Below are positions 45,274-63,388 of a stretch of DNA of 64,000 nt, one piece after another. The position numbers and the translations under genes are program-made. The stretch spans positions 186,001-250,000 of the forward strand of contig JAOSJV010000010.1 in the NCBI GenBank assembly GCA_027493935.1, given 5' to 3'. The notes beneath the pieces are model-generated. The model made no database searches, was not told the origin of the DNA, and worked only from the letters and a program-made list of their open reading frames with translations. The first letter of the stretch is position 1, and each line of letters opens with the position of its first letter. This DNA is from Burkholderiales bacterium. Lineage in GTDB: Bacteria > Pseudomonadota > Gammaproteobacteria > Burkholderiales > SG8-39.

Positions 45274-45471
45274 ATGAAAGTCAAAGCCCTGATCGCCGCC
45301 CTTGGCCTTGCCGCGGTTGCCCCGCTCGCGAACGCCGACACCGCCCAGCTCGAGCTCCTGCCGCGCGTCGGCGGCGCCGAGATCACCCAGTACGCGCCCG
45401 CGGTCTCCGCGAACGCGACGCTGGACAGCGCGTTCTTCTACGCCAACACCGGCGGCGTGTCGCCCCAGTAA
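45274..45471 (+). CDS. Small secreted protein of 65 aa, copy 1
   Basis: MKVKALIAALGLAAVAPLANADTAQLELLPRVGG...; RBS-like AGGAG upstream; terminator downstream. Confidence 0.7.
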   Translation: MKVKALIAALGLAAVAPLANADTAQLELLPRVGGAEITQYAPAVSANATLDSAFFYANTGGVSPQ

Positions 45472-45893: not shown

Positions 45894-46091
45894 ATGAAAG
45901 TCAAAGCCCTGATCGCCGCCCTTGGCCTTGCCGCGGTTGCCCCGCTCGCGAACGCCGATACCGCCCAGCTCGAGCTCCTGCCGCGCGTCGGCGGCGCCGA
46001 GATCACCCAGTACGCGCCCGCGGTCTCCGCGAACGCGACGCTGGACAGCGCGTTCTTCTACGCCAACACCGGCGGCGTGTCGCCCCAGTAA
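45894..46091 (+). CDS. Small secreted protein of 65 aa, copy 2, identical product
   Basis: Same 65-aa translation as 45274..45471. Confidence 0.7.
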   Translation: MKVKALIAALGLAAVAPLANADTAQLELLPRVGGAEITQYAPAVSANATLDSAFFYANTGGVSPQ

Positions 46092-49364: not shown

Positions 49365-49508
49365 CGTGGGGCGGATCGCGAAGCTGCTGCGCCTTGGTGA
49401 ACTTTCCAGTGTACCGCGACTGCAGTGTCCTTTTCCGGGCCGATTGCCGCGCGTGCGCGCAACTGCTAGGCTTCGAGCGCTTCCGCGGCGCGAGGCACCG
49501 GGTCGGGA

Positions 49509-50699
49509 TGGCCCTTCCAGGCAACACTGTCTACGACGCGCTCGTGGTGGGCGCCGGTCCGGCGGGCGCCCACCTCGCCCGCCTGCTCGCCCGGACCGGG
49601 CGGCGCGTCGCGCTCCTCGACAAGTCGCGCGTCCCGCGAGACAAGACCTGCGGCGGCGGGCTCTCGCGCAAGGCGATCGCGCTCCTCGACTGCGACGTGG
49701 CGCCGACGGCTCACGCGTGGATCAAGGGCGCGATCCTCACTTTCGGCCACCGGCTCACCCGCGTCAGGGAGTTCGAGCAGCCGGCGGGTTGCAACGGAGC
49801 TGCGCAGCGAGTTCGATCATCTTCTGGTCAGGCAGGCCTGCGGCGCCGGCGCGCGGCTGCTCGAGGCGACCGCCTTCCTCGACCTTCGCTTCCGCGGCGA
49901 TCTGGTCGAGGTGACGACGAGCCGCGGCACGCTCGCGTGCCGGCGGGTGTTTGCCGCCGACGGCGTCGCGAGCGCGGTGCGCGCGAAGCTCTTCGGCAGG
50001 CGGGCGGTCGCCTACGTCCCGGCGCTCGAGGCGCTGGTGCGCGTGCCGGCCGCCGCACACGAGCGGTTCGCCGAGCGCGTCGTGCTCGACTTCGGCGGCA
50101 TGCCGCACGGCTACGGCTGGATCTTCCCGAAGCGCGACCACCTCAACGTCGGCGTCTACTCGCCCTTCGGCGGCAGCGCGCTGCGTGCGCACCTCGAGCG
50201 ATTCATGGCGCGCTGCCCCGAGCTCGGCCGCCGCCGCGCCATCGAGCACCGCGGCTTCGCGATCCCGCTGCGCAACGCCGCCGGCGTCTTCGAGCACGGC
50301 CCGGTCGCGCTCGTTGGCGACGCAGCCGGACTCGCCGAGGCGATCTTCGGCGAGGGCATCTACTTCGCGCTCGCGAGCGCGGCGCTCGCGGCGCAGGCCG
50401 AGACCGAGTGCGAGCGCGGCGCGGCGCCGCTTCGCTACAGCGCGCTGCTGCGCGCGCGGCTGCTGCCCGAGCTGCGCGCGGCGTGGTGGCTCGCGCGGCT
50501 CCTTTTCGCCTGCCCCGAGTTCTCGTTCGGCCACCTCGTGCGCAACGACCGCGCGAGCGACCTTTTCGCCGGCGTGATCACCGGCGAGACGCGCTATCGC
50601 GATTGTCTGCGCCAGATCCTGCTCGCGGCGCCGAAGTGGCTGTTCCGGGAGCGGACGCCACATGAGCTTCCCCCGCTCGGGCCCGGCGTGCCCGGTTAG
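49509..50699 (+). CDS. FAD-dependent oxidoreductase, geranylgeranyl reductase-like, one frameshift
   Basis: YDALVVGAGPAGAHLARLLARTGRRVALLDK; GWIFPKRDHLNVGVYS; LVGDAAGLAEAIFGEGIYFAL; shift near 49790. Confidence 0.8.
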   Translation, partial: WPFQATLSTTRSWWAPVRRAPTSPACSPGPGGASRSSTSRASRETRPAAAGSRARRSRSSTATWRRRLTRGSRARSSLSATGSPASGSSSSRRVATELRSEFDHLLVRQACGAGARLLEATAFLDLRFRGDLVEVTTSRGTLACRRVFAADGVASAVRAKLFGRRAVAYVPALEALVRVPAAAHERFAERVVLDFGGMPHGYGWIFPKRDHLNVGVYSPFGGSALRAHLERFMARCPELGRRRAIEHRGFAIPLRNAAGVFEHGPVALVGDAAGLAEAIFGEGIYFALASAALAAQAETECERGAAPLRYSALLRARLLPELRAAWWLARLLFACPEFSFGHLVRNDRASDLFAGVITGETRYRDCLRQILLAAPKWLFRERTPHELPPLGPGVPG

Positions 50700-50893: not shown

Positions 50894-53392
50894 TCAGGTG
50901 TTCGAGAGCATCTTGATCAGGTTCGGCATGCCGCTGCCCTGGATGTACGGGTCGCGGCCGAGGTCGGTGCAGTTGCCGAGCAGGATCCGCTTGACGCGCT
51001 CCGGGTAGCCGACGAACTCCTTGCGGATCGAGAGGAAGGCGGCGAGCAGCCCCGCCACGTGCGGCGTCGCCATGCTGGTGCCGCTCATCTCGATGTAGAG
51101 ATCGCGCGCGGTGGGGTTCGCCTTCTTCCTGAACGCGTGGTACGCGGAGAGGACCTGCTCGCCCGGAGCCACCAGGTCGGGCTTGCGCCGCCCGTCGGCG
51201 GTCGGACCGCGCGACGAGAAGAACGACACGCCGTAGGTGTGCGGGCGCGACTTGTGGATCGAGCCGATCGCGATCGCCTCCTCGAGGTTGGCCGGATCGC
51301 CGATCGAGAGATCCATGTTGGCCGGCACCTCGCCACCCTCGGCCTTGAGCAGTGCGTAGCCCTCGTTGCCGGCGGCGAGGCACACGAGCACCCCCTGGTT
51401 CCACAGCCGCCGCAGCTCCTGGCAGAGCGGCGTGTGGCCGCAGCCGTACACGCTCGGGTCGAAGCCGCCGCCGAGGCTCAGGTTGACGCCGTGGACGAGG
51501 AGCTGCCCGGCGCGCTCGTTCAGCTCCGCGACCTTGTCAAGCGCCTTGATGATCCAGGAGTCCTGCCCGTTGCCGCCGTCGTCGAGCACCTTGAAGCCGT
51601 AGAGCTTCGCCTGCGGCGCCATCCCCTGGAGCTCGACCGCGTCGCCGCCCGCCTCGAGCGGCACCTTCATCCGGCCGGCGATGATCCCGGCGACGTGGGT
51701 GCCGTGCCCGTTGCCGTCGAGCGCGGCGAAACCCTGCTCCCCGGGAAGCAGCTCGCGCGCCTCGCCCTGCTGGGTGCAGTCCCACTGCGCCACGACGTTC
51801 GCGAACTCGGCGAAGTGCGGATGATCCGCGCGGATGCCGGTGTCGAGCACCGCCCAGTTGATGCCGCGGCCGGTCGCCTGGTAGCCGATGCTCGCCGGGC
51901 GCGCCTGGATCGTGTGGGTCGACTCGTGGATCAGCGCGCGCTTGCTCGCGTTGCGCCAGACCTTCTCGATCTTGAGGTCGAAGAAGAGCGTGCGCAGGCT
52001 CTCGAGCTCGAGCCGGGTGAGCTTCGCCGCGACGAAACGGCGCATGAGGTCGATCTCGGCCTCGGCCACCGGGTCGCCGGTCGTCTCGACCAGTTGCGCG
52101 ATGGTCGACCGCACGCGCTCACGGATCGCGTCGAGCGAGCCGCCGGCCGACGTTCCGGCATCGGGCGCGCGCAGCTGGATGAGCGTCGGATGCCGCGCCT
52201 CGCGACGCCCGTTCTCGATGTCGCGCACGAGATCCTTCACGAGCACCGCGCGCCCGGTGATCTGGGCGAACGCGTGGCCGACCACCTCGCGCACCGCCTC
52301 GCGCGCGAAGCCGGTGCGCAAGTAGCCGGTCGCCGAGTGCGGATGGCGCGGCGAGTCGGGGTTGAGGCCGACCCCGGCGTGGTTCTCGATCGTGCCGCCC
52401 TCGAAGTCGTTCGAGATGTCCGGGTCGGCCGCGACCGGATCCAGGCGATCGGCGATGTTCACCCAGCGCGCGACGCACTCCGGCACCTCGAGCGGGCCCC
52501 ACTCCTTCAGCACGTCCTGCACCTCGTCGAGGCCGAGCGGCGAGCCGAGCGTCAGGAAGAGGCGCACGTCCGCGTCGGCCCTGGCGAGCCGCCTGAGCAC
52601 GTTGTAGGCGATCATGGTGCCCTGGCTGTGCGCAACGACGACGAACGGCCCGCCGCCCGCGCTCAGCCGGTCGACGAGCGTCTGCTCCATCCTCGCCCGG
52701 CGATCCGGGTGGAACAGGAAATCGTTGACGTCGCGCAGGAACGTGCTCGAGAGAAACCGCGTCACGAGCTTGCGCAGGAACGGCGGCAGCGGAAGGATCT
52801 TCACATGGACGTCGCGCGCCGCGGGTCCGGCCGGCGGCACTGCGCCCGCGAGGATGCGCCCCGAGAGCTTGCGCAGCATGCGCTGCTCGGCCGGATCGGT
52901 CGTGAGCGTGCGGATCTCGGCGTCGAGCGCCGCCGCGGCATCGAACTCGCGCCCCGCGGCGAGCGCGGAGGCCGCGGCGACGCCGCTGCTCGCGCTGCCG
53001 GCGAGCCCGCCTTCGTCCGAGATCGTGTCGCCCGCCGAGCAGTCCTCCGCGAGCGGCTCCGGGTAGTACTCGCGGTTCGCCCAGTACGCCATGCGCGTCC
53101 GGTCGCCCATCTCGACGCCGAAGAGCCCCGTGTCCCACTGGCACTTGAGGATCGAGGCCTCGGGCTTGTTGCCGATGCCGTGAATGAAGATCACCGTCTG
53201 CGCGGCCGGCTGGACCCCCGACTTCACCGTCAGGGGAGCGCGCACCGGCGCCGGCCGGCGTCGAGGCCTTGCGCCGGCGCCGGCCGGCGCCGAGAGCTTC
53301 AAGCGCTCGAGACGCGCGCTCTTCTTGCGTGCTGTGGCCGACTTGCGGGAACCCTTGGCGCTCGATCTCGCGGCGCGCTTTGCCATGGCCAT
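50894..53392 (-). CDS. Alpha/beta-hydrolase (lipase-like) fused to S8 subtilisin-like serine peptidase, 832 aa
   Basis: FIHGIGNKP and VVAHSQGTMIAYN; then VLDTGIRADHP, GHGTHVAGIIAG, SGTSMATPHVAGL in one uninterrupted ORF. Confidence 0.85.
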   Translation of the reverse strand: MAMAKRAARSSAKGSRKSATARKKSARLERLKLSAPAGAGARPRRRPAPVRAPLTVKSGVQPAAQTVIFIHGIGNKPEASILKCQWDTGLFGVEMGDRTRMAYWANREYYPEPLAEDCSAGDTISDEGGLAGSASSGVAAASALAAGREFDAAAALDAEIRTLTTDPAEQRMLRKLSGRILAGAVPPAGPAARDVHVKILPLPPFLRKLVTRFLSSTFLRDVNDFLFHPDRRARMEQTLVDRLSAGGGPFVVVAHSQGTMIAYNVLRRLARADADVRLFLTLGSPLGLDEVQDVLKEWGPLEVPECVARWVNIADRLDPVAADPDISNDFEGGTIENHAGVGLNPDSPRHPHSATGYLRTGFAREAVREVVGHAFAQITGRAVLVKDLVRDIENGRREARHPTLIQLRAPDAGTSAGGSLDAIRERVRSTIAQLVETTGDPVAEAEIDLMRRFVAAKLTRLELESLRTLFFDLKIEKVWRNASKRALIHESTHTIQARPASIGYQATGRGINWAVLDTGIRADHPHFAEFANVVAQWDCTQQGEARELLPGEQGFAALDGNGHGTHVAGIIAGRMKVPLEAGGDAVELQGMAPQAKLYGFKVLDDGGNGQDSWIIKALDKVAELNERAGQLLVHGVNLSLGGGFDPSVYGCGHTPLCQELRRLWNQGVLVCLAAGNEGYALLKAEGGEVPANMDLSIGDPANLEEAIAIGSIHKSRPHTYGVSFFSSRGPTADGRRKPDLVAPGEQVLSAYHAFRKKANPTARDLYIEMSGTSMATPHVAGLLAAFLSIRKEFVGYPERVKRILLGNCTDLGRDPYIQGSGMPNLIKMLSNT

Positions 53393-54857: not shown

Positions 54858-55589
54858 TCACGCCGCGAGCGCGGTCTGCGCCCGCCAGGGGTCGAACTCC
54901 GGCGGCAGCAGCTCGAGGATCGCCTGCCCCGGCATGCCGTAGACGTCGTAGGTCACGTCGAGCTGCTGGAGCACGCGCACGAAGCGGCGCACCGTGCCCG
55001 GCGCGGCATTCGACTGCGCGCCTCGCCTCGGCAGGCCGCGCGCTCGCTCGAGGTAGAGCCCATTCAGCGCCTCGAGCACGCCGCGGCTCGCGATGAGATC
55101 GGTGCGGCTCGTGATCTCCTGGTACACCTGCTGCTCGACGTGCAGCGGTCCCGAGAGCACGAGGATCGCGTGGCCCCGATGGCGGCGGTAGACCGCATAC
55201 GGCCCGTAGAGCAAGTGCCGGTAGCGATAGCGGAAGCTGAAGTCCGGCACGTGGCGGTAGTCGAGCCCGGGACGGCGCGCACCCTCGGCGCGCGGCGGGC
55301 ACACCTGGTCGAAGTAGTAGAGCGAGAGCCACGCCCACAGGCCGCGGTTGCCCTCCACCTCCTCGGGCGGGAGCGGCGCGAGCCGCCGCCACAGGTACTC
55401 GCCGGCGCTCCAGCGCATCGCGAAGCGCTCGCGCTCGACCGTCGCCTCGGCCGAGAGCGCGGTGCTCGCCTGCGGGTCTTCGAGCAGCGCGGCGGGCGGC
55501 GCCTCGCGCGCCCCCTCGCGCACCCGCGCGAGATAGGCGCGAAACTTCTCGAGCCCCGCCGGCGTGAGCGCGCGCACGAGCTCGGTCAT
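54858..55589 (-). CDS. Hypothetical protein, DUF6339-like
   Basis: YRHLLYGPYAVYRRHRGHAILVLSGPLHVEQQVYQEITSRTDLIASRGVLEALNGLYLERARGLPRRGAQ...LLPPEFDPWR; ATGA overlap with 55589..56362. Confidence 0.6.
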   Translation of the reverse strand: MTELVRALTPAGLEKFRAYLARVREGAREAPPAALLEDPQASTALSAEATVERERFAMRWSAGEYLWRRLAPLPPEEVEGNRGLWAWLSLYYFDQVCPPRAEGARRPGLDYRHVPDFSFRYRYRHLLYGPYAVYRRHRGHAILVLSGPLHVEQQVYQEITSRTDLIASRGVLEALNGLYLERARGLPRRGAQSNAAPGTVRRFVRVLQQLDVTYDVYGMPGQAILELLPPEFDPWRAQTALAA

Positions 55590-56362
55590 CAGAGCGCCCC
55601 TCGCCCGAGCGCGCGTTCGAAGCGCACGCGCGCGTCGCGCGCGCGGCAGAACGCTTCCACCGCCTGGTCGATCCACTGCGTCTTGCGCGCGGCCGCCTCC
55701 TCGCCCACGCCCTGCGGCGGCGCCTCCACGCCCGGCAGCGCGCAGGCGTAGCGCAGCCACAGGCTCGTCCAGTCCGACGCATCGAAGTCCGGGTCGGCCT
55801 GGTCCTCGTCGAAGAGCACCGCGTGCAGGATCTGGCGCACCACCTCGGGATAGACGAGTGCGAGGAACGGAGTCGGCCGAGCGCGCGGCCTCGCCCACGT
55901 CGGCGATGCGGCGGTTGAGCTCCAGCACCGGCCAGTCGGTGAGCTCGAGCCGCCACACGCGCTCGCCGAGATCGGTGAGCTCCACCGGCAGCAGCGGCTG
56001 CTTGCGCGTCTCGTCCTCCTCGGGCCTGAGCGGCGAGGAGCTTGTCGGCCACCGCGAGCAGGAGCCCGTGGCGGTCGTCCACCACCTGTGAGGCGGAACT
56101 TCGGCAGCGGGCTCCGCGTGATCTCGGCCAGGCGCAGGTCGGCCGGGGTCTCGCGCTTCGCGACCGTGCCGAACGCGAAGCGCATGTAGGAAGTGGCGTT
56201 GTAGGCCTCGACGTACACGCGCGAGGCGGGCGGGAAGTCGAATTCGCCGAGGTCGTAGTCGGCGTCGAACGCCCACACCCCGCCCGCCGCCGGCACCAGG
56301 CGCACCGTCACCTTCGCGCGCGGGATGCGCCGGCGGCCGGTGAAGTTCAGGCGCCGCATCAT
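55589..56362 (-). CDS. Hypothetical protein of the GHKL-ATPase module, frameshifted
   Basis: MMRRLNFTGRRRIPRAKVTVRLVPAAGGVWAFDADYDLGEFDFPPASRVYVEAYNATSYMRFAFGTV...; overlapping junctions on both sides. Confidence 0.65.
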   Translation of the reverse strand: MMRRLNFTGRRRIPRAKVTVRLVPAAGGVWAFDADYDLGEFDFPPASRVYVEAYNATSYMRFAFGTVAKRETPADLRLAEITRSPLPKFRLTGGGRPPRAPARGGRQAPRRSGPRRTRRASSRCCRWSSPISASACGGSSSPTGRCWSSTAASPTWARPRARPTPFLALVYPEVVRQILHAVLFDEDQADPDFDASDWTSLWLRYACALPGVEAPPQGVGEEAAARKTQWIDQAVEAFCRARDARVRFERALGRGAL

Positions 56363-58282
56363 GGCGCCGCCTCCTCGTCGAGCGGGACCGCCTTCACCCG
56401 CACGTCGCGGCGCGGATCGAAGCCGCGCACCGCAGAGCCGCGAAGCCCGGCGCGTCGATGCGCAGCACGATCGTGTTCCCCGCGCGGCGCAGCACCTCCG
56501 CGCCCGCGGCCTCGAGCGCGAACCGCGACCCGGCGAGATCGAAGTCGAACGGCTGGTAGAGCGCGAACGGGTTGCCGCGGCGCACCTCGTAGGCCGCCTG
56601 CACCGCCGCGAAGCGCGGCACCGCGCCCACCGCGCCCGCGCCGCTCAGCCGGAAGCCGCCGGCGAGCTTCTGCAGCAGGAACTGGCGGTCCTTGCCGACC
56701 GTGTCGACCTCTTTCGTCGGGCCGCTGCCGTCCGAAGCCGGCGCGCTCGGCGCGGCGCGCGTCGCGCTCGGCGATCGCCGCCTCGGTCGGCACGTCGAGC
56801 GCGAAGAGGTGCCGGAGCAGCGTGAAGTCGCGCCCCGCCGCCGGCCGCGTGAGCACGCGCACGATCTCGCGCGGCGCACCCTTCACGTAGCGCAGCGTGA
56901 AGGGCCCGTGCCGGTAGCGCTCCTTGAAGCGCGGCGAGCGCTCCTGCCACTCGGTGTGCGCCGGGTTCTCCGAGTCGCCGAGTAGCCCCGAGAGCGCGCG
57001 CTCGCGCACGTGCACGATCGCGCGCACGCCGGCCTGCACGGGGCTGCGCACCCCCGCCACCGTGATGCCGTCGCGCACGAAGTGCTCCTCGCCGCCGGCG
57101 AGCGCGTCGTCGCGCTCGAGATAGACGTCGAAGGCGGCGAGCGAGGCTTCGCCCGCGGCGGGCTTCACCCACACCGGCACCTCGACCGCGACGCGCTCGC
57201 CGCGCGCGAACGCTTCGCGCAGCGGCGCGAGCGCGGTCTCCAGCGCCGCATCGCCCGTCCAGCGCGGCGCGGTGGCCGCGCTCGGCTCGGGCAGGCGCAC
57301 GCGCCGCCGCGCGCCGTGCACGAGCCCCCATTGCGCGAGCTCGACCAGGCGCGCGAGCGCGAGCCCCTCGCTCCAGCCCGCGCGCCCGAGCACGCGCGGC
57401 AGCGAGTCGGCGTCCAGCACCTCGCGCCGGCCGTCGTGCACCACCTCCACCTCGAGGTCGCCGGCGAGGATCGGCACGAAGTAGTGCCGCACCACCGAGG
57501 GCAGAAACGCCGCCGGATCGAGCTCGGCGTCCGGATAGGGCACCACCACCGAGAGGCCGGGCGCGCGCCCGCGCGCAAGCCCGAAGTCGGCGCAGAACGC
57601 CTCCACCCGCGTCGCGTCCTCGACCGGCAGCGCGAAGTCGCCCTCGAAGGCGCCGAAGTACCCGTAGGGGTAGTAGCGCGCGCCGGCGAGCTTGTGGATC
57701 CGAAGCACCGCTTGCCCCATCAGCAGGCGCCGCCCGTCGTCGCGCCGCGCGGTCACCGCGAAGAACGCGTTCAGCCGCGAGGTCGCCGGGAAGACCGTCT
57801 TGCCCAGGCCCCAGCGCCCGAGATCGGTCGCGCCCTTGCGCGAGCGCCCGACGTTGCGCCAGAAGTAGTAGAAGTCGTTCCTCGGCGCCTCCGCGCCGAG
57901 CGCCTCGTCCTCGCTCTGGCGCGGATCGCCCTGCAGCCCGCGCGTGCCGAAGTCCTCGATCGCGACGAAGTCGAGCGGCGCGCCCTCCTCGGGCAGCTGC
58001 GCAAGCCCGCTGCGGTCGGCGGCGAGGTGCGGCCACAGCCCCGCGAGATAGCGCGCCGCGCGCTCGGCCGGAATCCCCGCCCCCCGGCGCCGAGAAGGCG
58101 ATGCGCACCCGCGCCCGCTCACCCGGCGCGCGCGCGTCGAGCGAGTTCTGGATCGCCTCGCGCACCAGCGCGTCCGCGAGGCTCTCGAGCGCCTCCGTCG
58201 AGAAGAACTCGCTCTCGATCGGGTCGATGTTCATCTCGCCGGGGTGCATCCGGCGGAATTGCCACGCCGGTGGCTGACTCAC
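56359..58282 (-). CDS. GHKL/HSP90-like ATPase domain protein, frameshifted
   Basis: FSTEALESLADALVREAIQNSLDA (Bergerat-type N box); FVAIEDFGTRGL; DLGRWGLGKTVFPATSRLNAFFAVT. Confidence 0.75.
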
Positions 58283-58400
58283 TCGAACTCCCTCCACCGC
58301 TCCACGCAGATCGTCGTGCCCTCCGGTCGAGTTGCGCAGCGGCCCGCCATCCAGTGCTCCCGCTCCGTGTACCAGGGGCGCGGAATCGCGATGCAGCGCC

Positions 58401-58763
58401 TCAAGCTCGAAGCCGCGTGATCCGCGTGCGCCGAGGCTGGAGCACGATGAACGCTCCCCGGAGACTTTCGCCTTCGCGCTGCACCAACTGCACGACGCGC
58501 GTCGCAAGTGCAGAGCGCGCCGACGCGGGAGAGCGGATCAGGACCACGCCGACCGATTCGCGGTTCGCCGCGAAGACGAGCTGTCCGAAGTCCTTGTCCT
58601 CGGTAAGGAGCACGCGCGCTTCCCGTACCGAGAGGGCGACCACTTCGTCGTCGGTCGCGCCGGGAGCGCGTTCGAGCACGGCCAGAACGTCGAACCGCGC
58701 TGCGCGCAACGCTCGGACCGCCAAGAAATCGCAGCTCTCGTCCGCAAGGAGTTGGACGCTCAC
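58401..58763 (-). CDS. DUF5615 family PIN-like protein (putative toxin)
   Basis: MSVQLLADESCDFLAVRALRAARFDVLAVLERAPGATDDEVVALSVREARVLLTEDKDFGQLVF. Confidence 0.8.
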   Translation of the reverse strand: MSVQLLADESCDFLAVRALRAARFDVLAVLERAPGATDDEVVALSVREARVLLTEDKDFGQLVFAANRESVGVVLIRSPASARSALATRVVQLVQREGESLRGAFIVLQPRRTRITRLRA

Positions 58764-58784
58764 CGCACGACCCGGAGGGGGACT

Positions 58785-59012
58785 TCAATCGGCGGCTGCG
58801 GTTTCCTCGTGCGCGACGGCATCGGCGGCGAACAGCATCGCCGCCCGAATGTCCTCGCGGGTGAGGTTCGGATGGGCGTCCAGAAGCTCGGCCTCGCTCG
58901 CACCCTCGCCGAGCTTCCGCAGGATCCGCTCGACCGGAATCCGGGTGCCACGGATCACCGGCTTTCCCAGCATGATCTTCGGATTGATCTCGATTCGCTC
59001 GTTTGCGGCCAT
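58785..59012 (-). CDS. DUF433 domain protein (putative antitoxin)
   Basis: IEINPKIMLGKPVIRGTRIPVERILRKLGEGASEAELLDAHPNLTREDIRAAMLFAADAV. Confidence 0.8.
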   Translation of the reverse strand: MAANERIEINPKIMLGKPVIRGTRIPVERILRKLGEGASEAELLDAHPNLTREDIRAAMLFAADAVAHEETAAAD

Positions 59013-59104
59013 CGCCCCTCCACATGCCCAGGCGTCGGGCGTCGCGACCCGGACAGGCTCCAGAATAGCACTGCCAGACGCAAGCGGCCCCTGCGGCGCC
59101 AAGA

Positions 59105-59332
59105 TCACCGCGGGACAACCGTCCTGGTCGGGAGCCCGCGCGCGCCGAGCGAGTTCTGGATCGCCTCGCGCACCAGCGCGTCCGCGAGGCTCTCGAGCGC
59201 CTCGGTCGAGAAGAACTCGCTCTCGATCGGATCGATGTTCATCTCGCCGGGGTGCATCCGGCGGAACTGCCACTGCGGCATACGGGTCCAGTCTACGCGA
59301 CTGCGCTCGTCCTGCGCGAGGCCGCGACTCAT
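59105..59332 (-). pseudogene. Truncated second copy of the GHKL ATPase N-terminus
   Basis: QWQFRRMHPGEMNIDPIESEFFSTEALESLADALVREAIQNSL then divergence; near-identical to 58140-58265. Confidence 0.8.
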
Positions 59333-59740
59333 GGGTGCTCGGTTCCCTCGTTCAGAACGGCCAGATACCATACCGGTCGTAAACGAAGAGCCGGTTCCGC
59401 CGCTTCCCGGTGAGCTCGCGCGCAACCGCCAGCTCGACGAGCAGCTCCATCCCCGACGAGGCGGCGGGGAACGACAATCCGGTCGTCCGGCAAACTTCCG
59501 CCAGCGATACGACCGGCCGCGCCTTGAGCGCATCGAGAAACGGATGAATCGTTTCGAACTGAACGCGCGCAATCCCCTGCGCGCACAAGCAGTGAATCCG
59601 CAGTCGCGTACAGAAAGCGCTCGAGCGCGGCCATGCACTCTGGCACGCGGGCATGCGGGGGCGGCACGAATACGGCATTGCCCGGTCGGGTGCCGCCGAT
59701 CCGGTTCTGCGAACGGCCCTGTTTTGCCGCGCTTCACCCT
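59329..59740 (-). pseudogene. Fic family protein remnant lacking the GNGR half of the catalytic motif
   Basis: FETIHPFLD runs directly into ALKARPVVSLAEVCRTTGLSFPAASSGMELLVEL...RELTGKRRNRLFVYDRY. Confidence 0.7.
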
Positions 59741-60081
59741 CCATGCCGCATTCAGCAATGCTGGATTGGGCTCCGAATCATTAAGACTTTGCATCGAGGT
59801 CTGAATAGCTGAGCGCGCGACTGCAAGCTCTGCGCACGGACTGACGTGGCTTGCGGCGACGTCGCCGCAGCCCTGCGGCGCCGAGCTGCGACCGAAACCT
59901 CGCGAGCGGGCGCGGCACACGCGGGGTTCGGGCGCGGCCGGGCGCTGGGCACGAACGAAGCCGGCGAGTGGGCGACCTTGCCGGGAATGCGGGGTAAGGC
60001 GATGGATCCGCGCGCGTGCCCGGCGTGGTTACGCTTGACTCCGGTGCCAGGCGCCAACCGCCGTTCCGGTACGGGCGCGTC

Positions 60082-60630
60082 CTACCGGGCAGACCGGACA
60101 AACCTGGTTCGGTCCTCGGCGAGCGCCTTGTAGGCGCGATCGCGCTCCGCGTCATCCAGAAACCTCGTCTCGCGGAACCGGCTTTCGATCGTCGGCGCCG
60201 AGAGAAGACCGGCGGCGAGGCCCGCCTGGATCCACTCGCGATCACGCGGTTCGCCACGTGCATACTTCGAGACTGCGGCATCGTTGAGATCGAGGAAGAA
60301 CACGACGATGCCGTTCCGGAGCGGCACTTTCACGAGTCGATACTCCCACTGCGCCGGGAGGGTGGGAAGCTCGGGCGAGATGGGATCCAGGAAATACCCG
60401 TGACTCGCGTCGAACGGACTACCTTCCCCCAGGCTTTGGGTCAACTCGAAGACGCGGCCCGGGTCCTGACGCGTGTAGCAATCGACGTCGATCGACACGA
60501 GCATTCGCGCAGGGATCTCTCTTCCCTGCGCGACGCCGAGTATGGACAAGCTCCCGACAACGACGAATTCCGTATGCTGGGTGAGCTTCCTGGCTTGGTT
60601 GAAGAGCTCTTGCAGATGGCCTAGTTCCAT
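60082..60630 (-). CDS. DUF6036-like nucleotidyltransferase (AbiEii/MNT-type candidate toxin)
   Basis: ELFNQARKLTQHTEFVVVGSLSILGVAQGREIPARMLVSIDVDCYTR. Confidence 0.65.
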   Translation of the reverse strand: MELGHLQELFNQARKLTQHTEFVVVGSLSILGVAQGREIPARMLVSIDVDCYTRQDPGRVFELTQSLGEGSPFDASHGYFLDPISPELPTLPAQWEYRLVKVPLRNGIVVFFLDLNDAAVSKYARGEPRDREWIQAGLAAGLLSAPTIESRFRETRFLDDAERDRAYKALAEDRTRFVRSAR

Positions 60631-61145
60631 GCCCAGGACCAAGGCGAATTCTGAAACAGCGCATCCTCCCATTCGCCAAGCGCGGCCATTGCCTGGGCAA
60701 GCTTGCGCGGCGGCATTGCAAGAAGCTCCGCCCAGCGTTCGATGTAGTACGGACTGCAGGATCGCTTGCTACGCCACAGCGCGACGCGCGCGCGAGCCTT
60801 CTCCACCATCGCCGCGGCCGCTTGTTGATCGTCGGCCAGCGCGATGGCCAGCCGCAAGTGCCGGTTACGCTGGTGTTCGAGTTTCCTTGCCTGCTCGGCG
60901 CGAGCAAGCCTCCGCGCGTCGTCGCGCGCCGGGTGGTCGAGGACTTCTGCGTGGATATCGAGCGCGCGCAACAGCCGCTCGATCGTGTCCGTTTGCACGG
61001 GGTGCGGTTTGCCCTGCTCGAGCCGCGACAGGACTGCGCGCGACACGCCGGCCGCAGCGGCAAGCTCTTCCTGCTTCAGCCCTTTACGCGCTCTCTGCGC
61101 CTTGATGAGCTGTCCATACTGCTCGGCAAGCATTGGCGTACTCAT
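60621..61145 (-). CDS. XRE-family HTH protein (candidate antitoxin)
   Basis: LIKAQRARKGLKQEELAAAAGVSRAVLSRLEQGKPHPVQTDTIERLLRALDI; overlaps the nucleotidyltransferase. Confidence 0.8.
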   Translation of the reverse strand: MSTPMLAEQYGQLIKAQRARKGLKQEELAAAAGVSRAVLSRLEQGKPHPVQTDTIERLLRALDIHAEVLDHPARDDARRLARAEQARKLEHQRNRHLRLAIALADDQQAAAAMVEKARARVALWRSKRSCSPYYIERWAELLAMPPRKLAQAMAALGEWEDALFQNSPWSWAWN

Positions 61146-61378
61146 TGGGAAACTTCGTACATTATAGTAGACATCAGACGCGAAGTCATTCTGGAAGGTT
61201 CCACCCAAGATCAGACGCGCTTAAAGGCGGCCCGGGAAGAATTTCCTATTTCTTTTCAGTTATGTATCTGACCAGAACGACCGCCGCTTCAGGTGGCGGC
61301 CGCCCGAGTACACTCGCCGACGGGGATCACGTCTGGATCCGCGGGGCGCAGAATGACGCCCTCTGGGACTGAACCGAT

Positions 61379-61490
61379 GACCCGAGACGACCTCCTGAAG
61401 CGTATCTGGATCGACCCCGCCCGCTGCGGGGGACGGCCGTGCATCCGCGGGCACCGCATCTGGTATCGAACGTCGAATTCCGGGTCGTAG
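61379..61490 (+). pseudogene. Truncated DUF433 fragment
   Basis: MTRDDLLKRIWIDPARCGGRPCIRGHRIW then stop. Confidence 0.6.
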
Positions 61491-61557
61491 TCGGCAGTAC
61501 TTGCCCCCTTCAGATGCAGCGAACGCGGCCAGGAACTGTCGCTCCCGAGCCGGCCGG

Positions 61558-61920
61558 TCAAGCAGCCCGCTTCTCGATCGGTTTCACGGCGAGCCGAAGC
61601 CCGGTCGCTTTGAGCAGTGCGTTCAGGCTGCGAAGTTCCGGATTGCCTGTCTTGGAGAGCATCTTGTACGTCGCCTCGCGAGTGAGCTTCGCTCTGCGGG
61701 CGATCGCGGCGATACCGCCCTGCGCCTGGGCAACTTGGCGCAGCGCCAGCATGATCGCGGCCTGGTTGCCGCCCTCGATCACAGCCTCGAGGTATGCCGC
61801 GGCCTCCGCCGGGTCCTTGAGCTGCTCGATGAGCCAGGACTCGTAAGGCAGGCTAGCGGCGGGCGCGCGTCTTTTTCCGCGCAGTCCGCGCCTTGTAGTC
61901 CGCGAAGTACTCTTTCGCAC
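61558..61920 (-). CDS. HigA-like addiction-module antidote protein (HTH)
   Basis: DPAEAAAYLEAVIEGGNQAAIMLALRQVAQAQGGIAAIARRAKLTREATYKMLSKTGNPELRSLNALLKATGL. Confidence 0.8.
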   Translation of the reverse strand: MRKSTSRTTRRGLRGKRRAPAASLPYESWLIEQLKDPAEAAAYLEAVIEGGNQAAIMLALRQVAQAQGGIAAIARRAKLTREATYKMLSKTGNPELRSLNALLKATGLRLAVKPIEKRAA

Positions 61921-62203
61921 GGTCGATATCCTTCTGCTGCGTCCGCTTGTCTCCTCCGCAAAGGAGAAGAACCACTACCTGTCCCAGCCGGGCGAAATAG
62001 GCCCGGTATCCCGGGCCCCAATCGATTCTGAGCTCGAGCACACCTTCGCCCACCGGCTCGGTATCGCCGAAGCTGCCAACCGCGACACGGGCAATGCGCG
62101 CCTCGATCCGCGCGCGCGCCTGCCGGTCCTTCAGGTCCCGCAGCCATTCGACGAATGGCTGCTCGCCGGTCGGGGTCTGGTAATAGCGAAGCTCGATGGC
62201 CAT
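61853..62203 (-). CDS. RelE/HigB-like addiction-module toxin
   Basis: FVEWLRDLKDRQARARIEARIARVAVGSFGDTEPVGEGVLELRIDWGPGYRAYFARLGQVVVLLLCGGDKRTQQKDIDRAKEY. Confidence 0.85.
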   Translation of the reverse strand: MAIELRYYQTPTGEQPFVEWLRDLKDRQARARIEARIARVAVGSFGDTEPVGEGVLELRIDWGPGYRAYFARLGQVVVLLLCGGDKRTQQKDIDRAKEYFADYKARTARKKTRARR

Positions 62204-62421
62204 TGTAATTTATAGTTAACAGAGAAGTCAACGCGAGCCTACGCCCCTTCAACCGTCGGGCGAGCGGGAACCGCGGAATAGACGCATCGCGCGCAGTTTC
62301 GCGCCCGGGGTGGCTCAGCGAATGAGCCACGCCTCGCAGCACGGCCGCACAGATGGCAGCGAGCCTACCTTGGCTGCAAAGTCCAGAGAAAACGCACAGG
62401 GCCTGTATCCTTCGGACGCCT

Positions 62422-62781
62422 CTACCTGTGACACGCCCAGCGCCGGTACGCCTCGATCCACTCCGCGCCCGCGGGTAACGGGGTGGGCAAGGGCAAGTCG
62501 AGGATCGCGATTGCCTGGCGTGTTCGCCCGCGCGCGCAGATGGCGACGATCTCCTCGGCGTCGTTCAGGTCGACGCGTTCAACCGTGACCTCGCACCCGA
62601 GGACCTGCGTCTTGAACGGCAGCTCGAGGCTCTCGTCGATCATCGTATAGAGGGCGGTCCGCTGCTCCGACTCGTTGTACGCATCGACGACTGCTTCCTC
62701 GACGAGTCGGTCGAGCTTGCGCGGATTCACGGACGGTCGGGCGCGTCTTTCCTTCGAACGGTTTCCAGGCGGCTTGCTCAC
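62422..62781 (-). CDS. CcbP-like putative calcium-binding protein
   Basis: LYTMIDESLELPFKTQVLGCEVTVERVDLNDAEEIVAICARGRTRQAIAILDLPLPTPLPAGAEWIEAYRRW; GTGA overlap. Confidence 0.65.
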   Translation of the reverse strand: MSKPPGNRSKERRARPSVNPRKLDRLVEEAVVDAYNESEQRTALYTMIDESLELPFKTQVLGCEVTVERVDLNDAEEIVAICARGRTRQAIAILDLPLPTPLPAGAEWIEAYRRWACHR

Positions 62782-63146
62782 CCGACAGGCGATGGCCGCT
62801 TGACTCGAAGCTTCCGGTCGCTCAGCACGGCGAAACAGCCTGCGAGAGCGTCCAGTGGATGCTCGTTGGCGGCCCAAGTCACCCGTTCGATGAGCGCATT
62901 CGCCCCGGGTGCGCGTAGCCGCACAACCAAGATGCCAGGATGCGACCCGGGCGCGAACTGGCGAACATCCGAAAAGTCGAGATCCTGCGTGATGAAGAAG
63001 CGCCCGGCGCCTCGCACCGCCGCCCAGACGTCGGGGTCGGGCTTGCCGGTGAGCTTCTCGGCGGGAACGGTGTCGACCTCGTGGCACAATGCTTCCAGCA
63101 GCGCGACGAGACGTGCGGGCATGATCTCGTCGAGCTTGACCTTCAT
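62778..63146 (-). CDS. DUF5615 family PIN-like protein (putative toxin)
   Basis: MKVKLDEIMPARLVALLEALCHEVDTVPAEKLTGKPDPDVWAAVRGAGRFFITQDLDFSDVRQF. Confidence 0.8.
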   Translation of the reverse strand: MKVKLDEIMPARLVALLEALCHEVDTVPAEKLTGKPDPDVWAAVRGAGRFFITQDLDFSDVRQFAPGSHPGILVVRLRAPGANALIERVTWAANEHPLDALAGCFAVLSDRKLRVKRPSPVG

Positions 63147-63388
63147 GCCACGGAAGGCGCCGGCGGCACGGGGAGATCCTCTTCGGCCGAGGCAGCGGCG
63201 AACGCGATCACGGCCTTGACTGCCGCGTCGTCGAGCGTGGGAAAGTCGCGGAGAATCTCGGCGACCGTCATCCCTTCGGCCAGGCTCGCCAAAACCGTTC
63301 GCACCGTAACGCGCGTCCCGCGCACGACCGGCTCTCCGCCGCAGATCGCAGGATCGCGCACGATGTGCGCCTGGTAATCGATGGCCAC
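63143..63388 (-). CDS. DUF433 domain protein (putative antitoxin)
   Basis: IVRDPAICGGEPVVRGTRVTVRTVLASLAEGMTVAEILRDFPTLDDAAVKAVIAFAA. Confidence 0.85.
   Translation of the reverse strand: MAIDYQAHIVRDPAICGGEPVVRGTRVTVRTVLASLAEGMTVAEILRDFPTLDDAAVKAVIAFAAASAEEDLPVPPAPSVA

What the first reader, a model, noticed from the sequence alone, without database searches (positions are those of the whole stretch)
50894..53392. Intact 832-aa alpha/beta-hydrolase plus subtilisin fusion with no obvious secretion signal
Seen: one uninterrupted ORF carries a lipase-like FIHGIGNKP / VVAHSQGT block (nucleophile elbow) followed by a full S8 triad set (DTGI, GHGTHVAG, SGTSMATPH). The N-terminus is Lys/Arg/Ala-rich rather than a typical signal peptide. 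Established: S8 peptidases are usually exported and matured by prodomains. Inference: a possibly cytoplasmic dual-hydrolase protein whose N-terminal domain could be an effector released or gated by the protease, or the reverse.
Basis: partly seen in the sequence, partly recalled or inferred. Interest (0 to 1): 0.78.

Follow-up and report, generated by a model that had tools for sequence, protein, structure and literature searches.

The report
Protease fused to its lipase-like effector
One bacterial gene joins a lipase-like enzyme to a subtilisin protease with no export signal; relatives encode the same two kinds of enzyme as separate neighbouring genes, so it looks like a protease chained to a toxic lipase that it switches on, probably for defence against viruses, though no activity has been tested.

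Summary
The 832-aa ORF is real and intact. It lies on the minus strand, 53392 to 50894. It is a lipase/phospholipase-like alpha/beta-hydrolase (S256-D318-H352) followed by a complete S8 subtilase (D517-H563-S773), with no signal peptide or TM helix. Ten full-length fusions form one clade, scattered over Burkholderiales, Alphaproteobacteria, Methylomirabilota, Chloroflexota and two integrase-flanked IMG/VR proviral contigs. Each domain has split relatives that are genetically paired. Near relatives of the hydrolase are encoded next to, or fused to, trypsin-like proteases or caspases. In 8 of 9 randomly sampled loci, the S8 subclade is followed within 60 bp by a different alpha/beta-hydrolase or an LmuA/Avs1a-type MBL nuclease, sometimes with a patatin as well. 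The best reading is a cytoplasmic protease-gated effector unit packed into one chain. It works like the published gated nuclease-protease pairs and the fungal HET-Q2/HET-Q1 pair. Autoprocessing, the trigger, toxicity and phage defence are all untested. A canonical I9 prodomain could not be shown. The kind (protease plus gated effector) is known. The single-chain lipase-S8 form, and the S8 subclade coupled to lipases or nucleases, were not found in the papers searched. I call it a new variant of a known kind.

The parts
50894..53392 (-). 832-aa fused alpha/beta-hydrolase - S8 subtilase gene
   Evidence: dN/dS 0.21 against L007
53213..53392 (-). residues 1-60: K/R/A-rich disordered tail, poorly conserved, no signal peptide
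52268..53212 (-). residues 61-375: lipase-like alpha/beta-hydrolase domain
52793..53041 (-). residues 118-200: variable insertion in the hydrolase with two low-confidence segments (about 121-149 and 186-199) around a helical lid; dN/dS 0.67; candidate gate or cut region (inference)
52625..52627 (-). hydrolase nucleophile S256 (AHSQGT)
52439..52441 (-). hydrolase acid D318 (RLDPVA)
52337..52339 (-). hydrolase histidine H352 (HPHSATGYL)
51923..52240 (-). residues 385-490: conserved linker in the place of a subtilase prodomain; I9 identity not shown
   Evidence: (low confidence)
50897..51895 (-). residues 500-832: S8 subtilase domain of the 'C[GR].[TS]P[LV]C.E..RL' subclade
51842..51844 (-). S8 catalytic D517 (DTG)
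51704..51706 (-). S8 catalytic H563 (GHGTHV)
51074..51076 (-). S8 catalytic S773 (SGTSMA)

Best explanation
The gene encodes a cytoplasmic, single-polypeptide protease-effector unit. The N-terminal lipase/phospholipase-like hydrolase is the toxic effector, held inactive in the chain. The C-terminal S8 protease is its activator. On an unknown trigger, most likely foreign DNA or phage infection, the protease becomes active and cuts the chain, in the variable hydrolase insertion (118-200) or in the 385-490 linker, freeing the hydrolase to attack membrane lipids and stop or kill the cell. Shown: the architecture, both intact triads under selection, no export signal, spread over unrelated lineages as one gene without a constant neighbour, and genetic coupling of each half to partners of the other kind. 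Inferred: cytoplasmic location, lipase substrate, cleavage as the switch, and a defence role.
For: Both triads are invariant across fusions and dN/dS shows selection on both domains. The hydrolase domain folds as an alpha/beta-hydrolase; its nearest structures are A. fulgidus lipase, the Nir2 DDHD domain, LPLA2 and LCAT, and the profile hits LPLA2 at E=8e-4. Hydrolase relatives sit in 2-gene operons with trypsin-like proteases or caspases, and are fused to trypsin in two Actinomycetota ORFs. S8-subclade relatives are followed by alpha/beta-hydrolases or LmuA/Avs1a-type MBL nucleases, in 8 of 9 random-sample loci with 11-55 bp gaps. The S8 tree splits cleanly by partner. The fused hydrolases are sister to the trypsin-paired ones. 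PADLOC 'subtilase' model hit E=4.8e-79. Two fusions lie beside a phage-type integrase; relatives lie on conjugative plasmids and near cyclase/TIR genes. Proteolytic activation of a gated effector is proven for MBL nucleases with trypsin-like or caspase partners (PMC12799240), and a subtilase activates gasdermin in fungi (PMC10989679).
Against: No activity, cleavage or phage-defence data exist. The fusion has no linked sensor gene in any locus, and only one locus (L008) has another protease-hydrolase pair alongside. Several loci (Malikia between housekeeping genes, Methylomirabilota) are not obvious defence islands. The wider hydrolase family includes many members with no protease partner, notably in Chloroflexota. 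The hydrolase of the split S8 pairs belongs to a different alpha/beta-hydrolase family (hhalign probability 2.7%), so the coupling is by kind, not by inheritance of one pair. The insertion is not longer in protease-paired than in unpaired hydrolases, so a specific gate is not established. Foldseek TM-scores are low (0.15-0.4).
Confidence: 0.58

Rival explanations
1. Reverse roles: the hydrolase domain is the sensor or targeting part (binding or cleaving a lipid, acyl group or ester made in infection or stress) and the S8 protease is the executioner that degrades cell or phage proteins.
For: S8 alone can be a toxic effector (general reasoning), and the hydrolase precedes the S8 domain in the place of the N-terminal regulatory extension (about 160-300 aa) of most split S8 relatives.
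Against: In split relatives the protease is what stays constant while the partner changes between lipase-like, patatin, Tle1-like and nuclease types, the pattern expected if partners are effectors.
Confidence: 0.15
2. A cytoplasmic catabolic or housekeeping bifunctional hydrolase (lipid, polyester or protein turnover) with no role in conflict.
For: Some loci are in chromosomal core regions with no mobile genes (L003-L006, L002), and no phage data exist.
Against: Patchy spread over distant phyla as one clade; integrase neighbours; relatives coupled to LmuA/Avs1a nucleases, caspases, trypsin-like proteases, TIR and cyclase genes; rare in random genomes, 2/319 Pseudomonadota for the whole S8 subclade.
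Confidence: 0.15
3. An exported or surface enzyme that uses a non-classical route, with the hydrolase as a second digestive module.
For: Most characterised S8 peptidases are secreted (general knowledge; secreted S8 hits).
Against: No hydrophobic N-terminal segment in any of 8 homologues. All fused and split members of the subclade end exactly 57 residues after the catalytic-serine motif, with no C-terminal sorting or anchor domain.
Confidence: 0.07

Closest known systems
Gated MBL nuclease-protease pairs of Hachiman (HamM/HamA), Avs1, Lamassu and DRT, and caspase-nuclease Canu (PMC12799240)
   Same: A protease coupled to a hydrolytic effector; the S8 subclade here is itself paired with LmuA/Avs1a-type MBL proteins in L026, L175, L176, L190 and L196.
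   Different: Protease is S8, not trypsin or caspase; the effector is a lipase-like alpha/beta-hydrolase in the same chain; no HamB, STAND, SMC or RT partner gene; cleavage not shown.
Caspase plus alpha/beta-hydrolase pairing in VMAP ternary systems (Kaur et al. 2020, PMC7159879)
   Same: Protease plus alpha/beta-hydrolase; caspase-paired hydrolases found here belong to the same wider hydrolase family.
   Different: Here the protease is S8 and fused; no MoxR, vWA or VMAP genes near the fusion.
HET-Q2 subtilase / HET-Q1 gasdermin of Podospora (PMC10989679)
   Same: A subtilase that activates a membrane-attacking death effector encoded next to it.
   Different: Effector is a pore former, not an enzyme; separate genes; fungal; no sequence test was made here.
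IetS, S8 anti-phage peptidase of IetAS
   Same: Cytoplasmic-type defence S8 peptidase; weak model matches (E=4.7e-11 PADLOC, 7e-7 NCBIfam).
   Different: Far below the NCBIfam cut-off (27.9 against 900 bits), no linked IetA ATPase, different architecture.
PADLOC 'subtilase' model PDLC03014
   Same: Best model match, E=4.8e-79, also matched by the split S8 relatives.
   Different: The library gives no system or mechanism for it, and the model (391 aa) covers only part of the fusion.

Membership tests
S8 subtilase family | D-H-S triad in DTG / HGTHV / GTSMA motifs and Pfam PF00082 above cut-off | tested here: met
   154.2 bits against cut-off 21.8; D517, H563, S773 invariant
S8 subtilase family | canonical I9-type prodomain | tested here: inconclusive
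   no Pfam or PDB profile match for residues 390-490; only a low-confidence beta-alpha-beta-alpha-beta prediction
alpha/beta-hydrolase superfamily | alpha/beta fold with nucleophile elbow and Ser-Asp-His triad | tested here: met
alpha/beta-hydrolase superfamily | a curated Pfam family above its cut-off | tested here: not met
   all Pfam hits below cut-off
gated nuclease-protease pairs (PMC12799240) | MBL-fold nuclease as effector | tested here: not met
   effector domain is an alpha/beta-hydrolase; only other members of the S8 subclade pair with MBL nucleases
gated nuclease-protease pairs (PMC12799240) | trypsin-like or caspase activating protease | tested here: not met
   S8 domain
gated nuclease-protease pairs (PMC12799240) | proteolytic activation of the effector | not testable with these tools
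   needs expression and cleavage assays
VMAP / MoxR-vWA ternary systems | MoxR, vWA and VMAP genes in the locus | tested here: not met
   no such genes recognised among neighbours read by sequence; no constant neighbour in fusion loci
Lamassu | LmuB SMC-like ATPase and LmuC in the locus | tested here: inconclusive
   none recognised among window or homologue neighbours; not every neighbour was scanned against PADLOC
IetAS | IetS model above cut-off plus IetA ATPase gene | tested here: not met
   27.9 bits against 900; no IetA recognised

The most novel reading that the evidence does not exclude
A complete one-gene immune executor: a single cytoplasmic chain that holds the sensor or oligomerisation part (N-terminal tail and linker), an S8 activating protease and a lipase death effector that it releases by self-cleavage. 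This would be a new class of proteolytically activated effector (lipase instead of nuclease or gasdermin), with the pair also existing in split form.
Probability: 0.33. Interest if true: 0.78.

Novelty: new variant of a known kind. Interest (0 to 1): 0.6.

Why it matters
Tuck et al. (PMC12799240) suggested that enzyme classes other than MBL nucleases might be protease-activated in antiviral immunity. This family is a concrete candidate: one S8 subclade coupled to lipase-like hydrolases or MBL nucleases, and one hydrolase family coupled to S8, trypsin-like or caspase proteases. The single-chain version puts protease and presumed substrate in one small gene that can be tested directly with two point mutants. 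It would extend the subtilase-executes-death theme known from fungal HET-Q2 to bacteria.

Tried and rejected
(1) Full-length AlphaFold2 with 8 homologues failed (pLDDT 43); only the hydrolase domain was modelled well. (2) An I9 prodomain for residues 390-490 was suspected from the motif pattern; Pfam, PDB-profile and combined tests were negative, so it stays open. (3) A longer gate insertion specific to protease-paired hydrolases: lengths overlap with unpaired ones, not supported. (4) The hydrolase of the split S8 pairs as ortholog of the fused hydrolase: rejected (hhalign probability 2.7%). (5) A conserved neighbour gene for the fusion: none beyond the same genus and unrelated transporters. 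(6) IetS membership: rejected. (7) Viral-contig scans with the trypsin-paired hydrolase alignment gave no relative; the S8 scan gave only weak ones. (8) Paper searches for PADLOC plus subtilase and for hydrolase-protease anti-phage systems found nothing. (10) A simple ORF caller first picked antisense frames in this GC-rich window; it was re-trained on known genes. (11) The label 'caspase' for hydrolase partners L159 and L161 rests on reading the N-terminus by eye; Pfam finds only a STAND/NACHT-type NTPase in L159.

Full report
OBSERVATION. The reported ORF exists, uninterrupted, at 50894-53392 on the minus strand. Pfam finds a full S8 peptidase at residues 509-815 (E=6e-45); hydrolase models match only below their cut-offs. 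Eight full-length proteins align end to end: the window plus L002-L008, 57-90% identical. S256, D318, H352 and D517, H563, S773 are invariant; the codons were checked. Against L007, the same-genus relative (90% identity), dN/dS is 0.10-0.17 in the hydrolase core, 0.155 in S8, 0.67 in the insertion 118-200 and 0.48 in the N-terminal tail. No homologue has a hydrophobic N-terminal segment or TM-like stretch; SignalP was not available.

WHAT THE N-TERMINAL DOMAIN IS. A profile of the domain hits lysosomal phospholipase A2 at the nucleophile elbow (E=8e-4). An AlphaFold2 model of residues 58-385 is good (pLDDT 78.5, pTM 0.82), with two low-confidence segments at about 121-149 and 186-199 around a helical lid. 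Foldseek returns A. fulgidus lipase, the Nir2 DDHD domain, LPLA2 and LCAT, mostly at high probability but with marginal E-values and low TM-scores. It is therefore a lipase/phospholipase-like alpha/beta-hydrolase; the substrate is inferred.

THE LINKER. Residues 385-490 are conserved and lie where a subtilase prodomain would be. The failed full-length model shows beta-alpha-beta-alpha-beta there at low confidence. Profile searches against Pfam and PDB found no I9 match. Whether this is an inhibitory prodomain is open.

RELATIVES OF THE HYDROLASE. Stand-alone relatives sit in tight two-gene operons with a protease of another class. Trypsin-like: Rhizobium etli L027, Agrobacterium fabrum L028, Sinorhizobium L029, and random Pseudomonadota genomes L034 and L035. 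Caspase: Hymenobacter L031, L036, L037, L039, L041 and L056, and Actinomycetota L155-L158. Two Actinomycetota ORFs are trypsin-hydrolase fusions (L164, 715 aa; L160, 689 aa), in the opposite domain order. Many weaker relatives, notably in Chloroflexota, have no protease neighbour. In the hydrolase tree the S8-fused sequences are one clade (100/100) next to the trypsin-paired clade (grouping support 96/92).

RELATIVES OF THE PROTEASE. The S8 domain belongs to a discrete subclade with signature C[GR].[TS]P[LV]C.E..RL. At E<=1e-50 it occurs in 2 of 319 sampled Pseudomonadota genomes (window included) and 8 of 237 Actinomycetota. Of the nine sampled loci other than the window, eight have an effector-type gene 11-55 bp downstream: an alpha/beta-hydrolase in six (L191, L193, L194, L195, L197, L198) and an LmuA/Avs1a-type MBL protein in two (L190, L196), L190 with a patatin fragment upstream. 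L192 has none. Plasmid examples agree: alpha/beta-hydrolase in L024, L025, L177; MBL in L026 (next to cyclase, E2 and TIR genes), L175 (with patatin) and L176 (with a Tle1-like phospholipase). The S8 tree splits into three partner-specific groups: fused, separate alpha/beta-hydrolase, MBL (100/100, 92/90, 100/100). The alpha/beta-hydrolase of the split S8 pairs is a different family from the fused one, so a similar combination arose more than once.

CONTEXT OF THE FUSION. No neighbour is shared between fusion loci outside the genus, apart from general transporters and enzymes, so the gene moves alone. Two IMG/VR contigs carry it beside a tyrosine integrase. L008 has a caspase plus a second hydrolase directly upstream; L007 has a calpain-like protease downstream and a DUF3376 patatin nearby. 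In the window it lies next to a cluster of toxin-antitoxin-like genes and a weak PADLOC candidate (PDC-M33A) at 54.8-63 kb.

MECHANISM. Most likely the protease activates the hydrolase by cutting the chain, with the hydrolase as executioner. Proteolytic activation of a gated effector is proven for MBL nucleases with trypsin-like or caspase partners (PMC12799240). Caspase with alpha/beta-hydrolase is a known genomic pairing (PMC7159879). Phospholipases replace gasdermins in some CARD-NLR systems (as stated in PMC13236601). A subtilase activates gasdermin in fungi (PMC10989679). Shown here: architecture, conservation, coupling. Inferred: cut, trigger, substrate, defence.

NOVELTY AND SCORE. The kind is known; a lipase-S8 single chain and an S8 subclade coupled to lipases or nucleases were not found in the papers searched. 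That library holds only open-licence papers, so absence is weak evidence. I score it as a new variant of a known kind, interest 0.6.

Noticed in passing
window 54858-58507 (-): Three-gene cluster with a GHKL-ATPase-like start (MNIDPIESEFFSTEALESLADALVREAIQNSLDA). The start and the body of the large gene lie in different frames (56645-58507 and 56359-58122); weak PADLOC hit PDC-M33A, E=7.7e-6.
   Followed up: partly
window 59105-59332 (-): A partial second copy of the 5' end of that GHKL-like gene, with the DUF433/DUF5615 pair (58401-59012) between the copies; looks like an insertion with duplication.
   Followed up: no
window 58401-63388 (-): Several toxin-antitoxin-like modules: DUF433 + DUF5615 (58401-59012) and a similar-looking pair at 62778-63388, a Gp49/HTH pair (61558-62203), and DUF6036 nucleotidyltransferase + HTH (60082-61133).
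   Followed up: partly
window 49394-50699 (+): Geranylgeranyl-reductase-like FAD enzyme that seems frame-shifted here (two ORFs) but is one 397-aa ORF in L007 18442-19635.
   Followed up: partly
window 45274-45471 and 45894-46091 (+): Two copies of the same 65-aa small ORF (MKVKALIAALGLAAVAPLANA...), 620 bp apart.
   Followed up: no
L164 5014-7158 (-); [quoted passage not shown]
   Followed up: yes
L175 1832-6099; L190 3808-7545; L176 3101-7239: Three-gene sets: patatin + S8 + LmuA-type MBL (L175, L190; the L190 patatin call is short) and S8 + MBL + Tle1-like phospholipase (L176).
   Followed up: partly
L008 6341-9771: Separate alpha/beta-hydrolase + caspase operon directly upstream of the fused hydrolase-S8 gene in an alphaproteobacterial MAG; same pair in L081.
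   Followed up: partly
L007 12774-14138 and 5596-8649: Calpain-family protease downstream of the fusion and a 1017-aa DUF3376 patatin nearby in the same-genus relative; neither was found beside the window's copy.
   Followed up: no
L003 2835-3524; L006 12458-13147: Amidase_3-like gene 13 bp downstream of the fusion in two Malikia genomes; not found in the related MAG L004.
   Followed up: no
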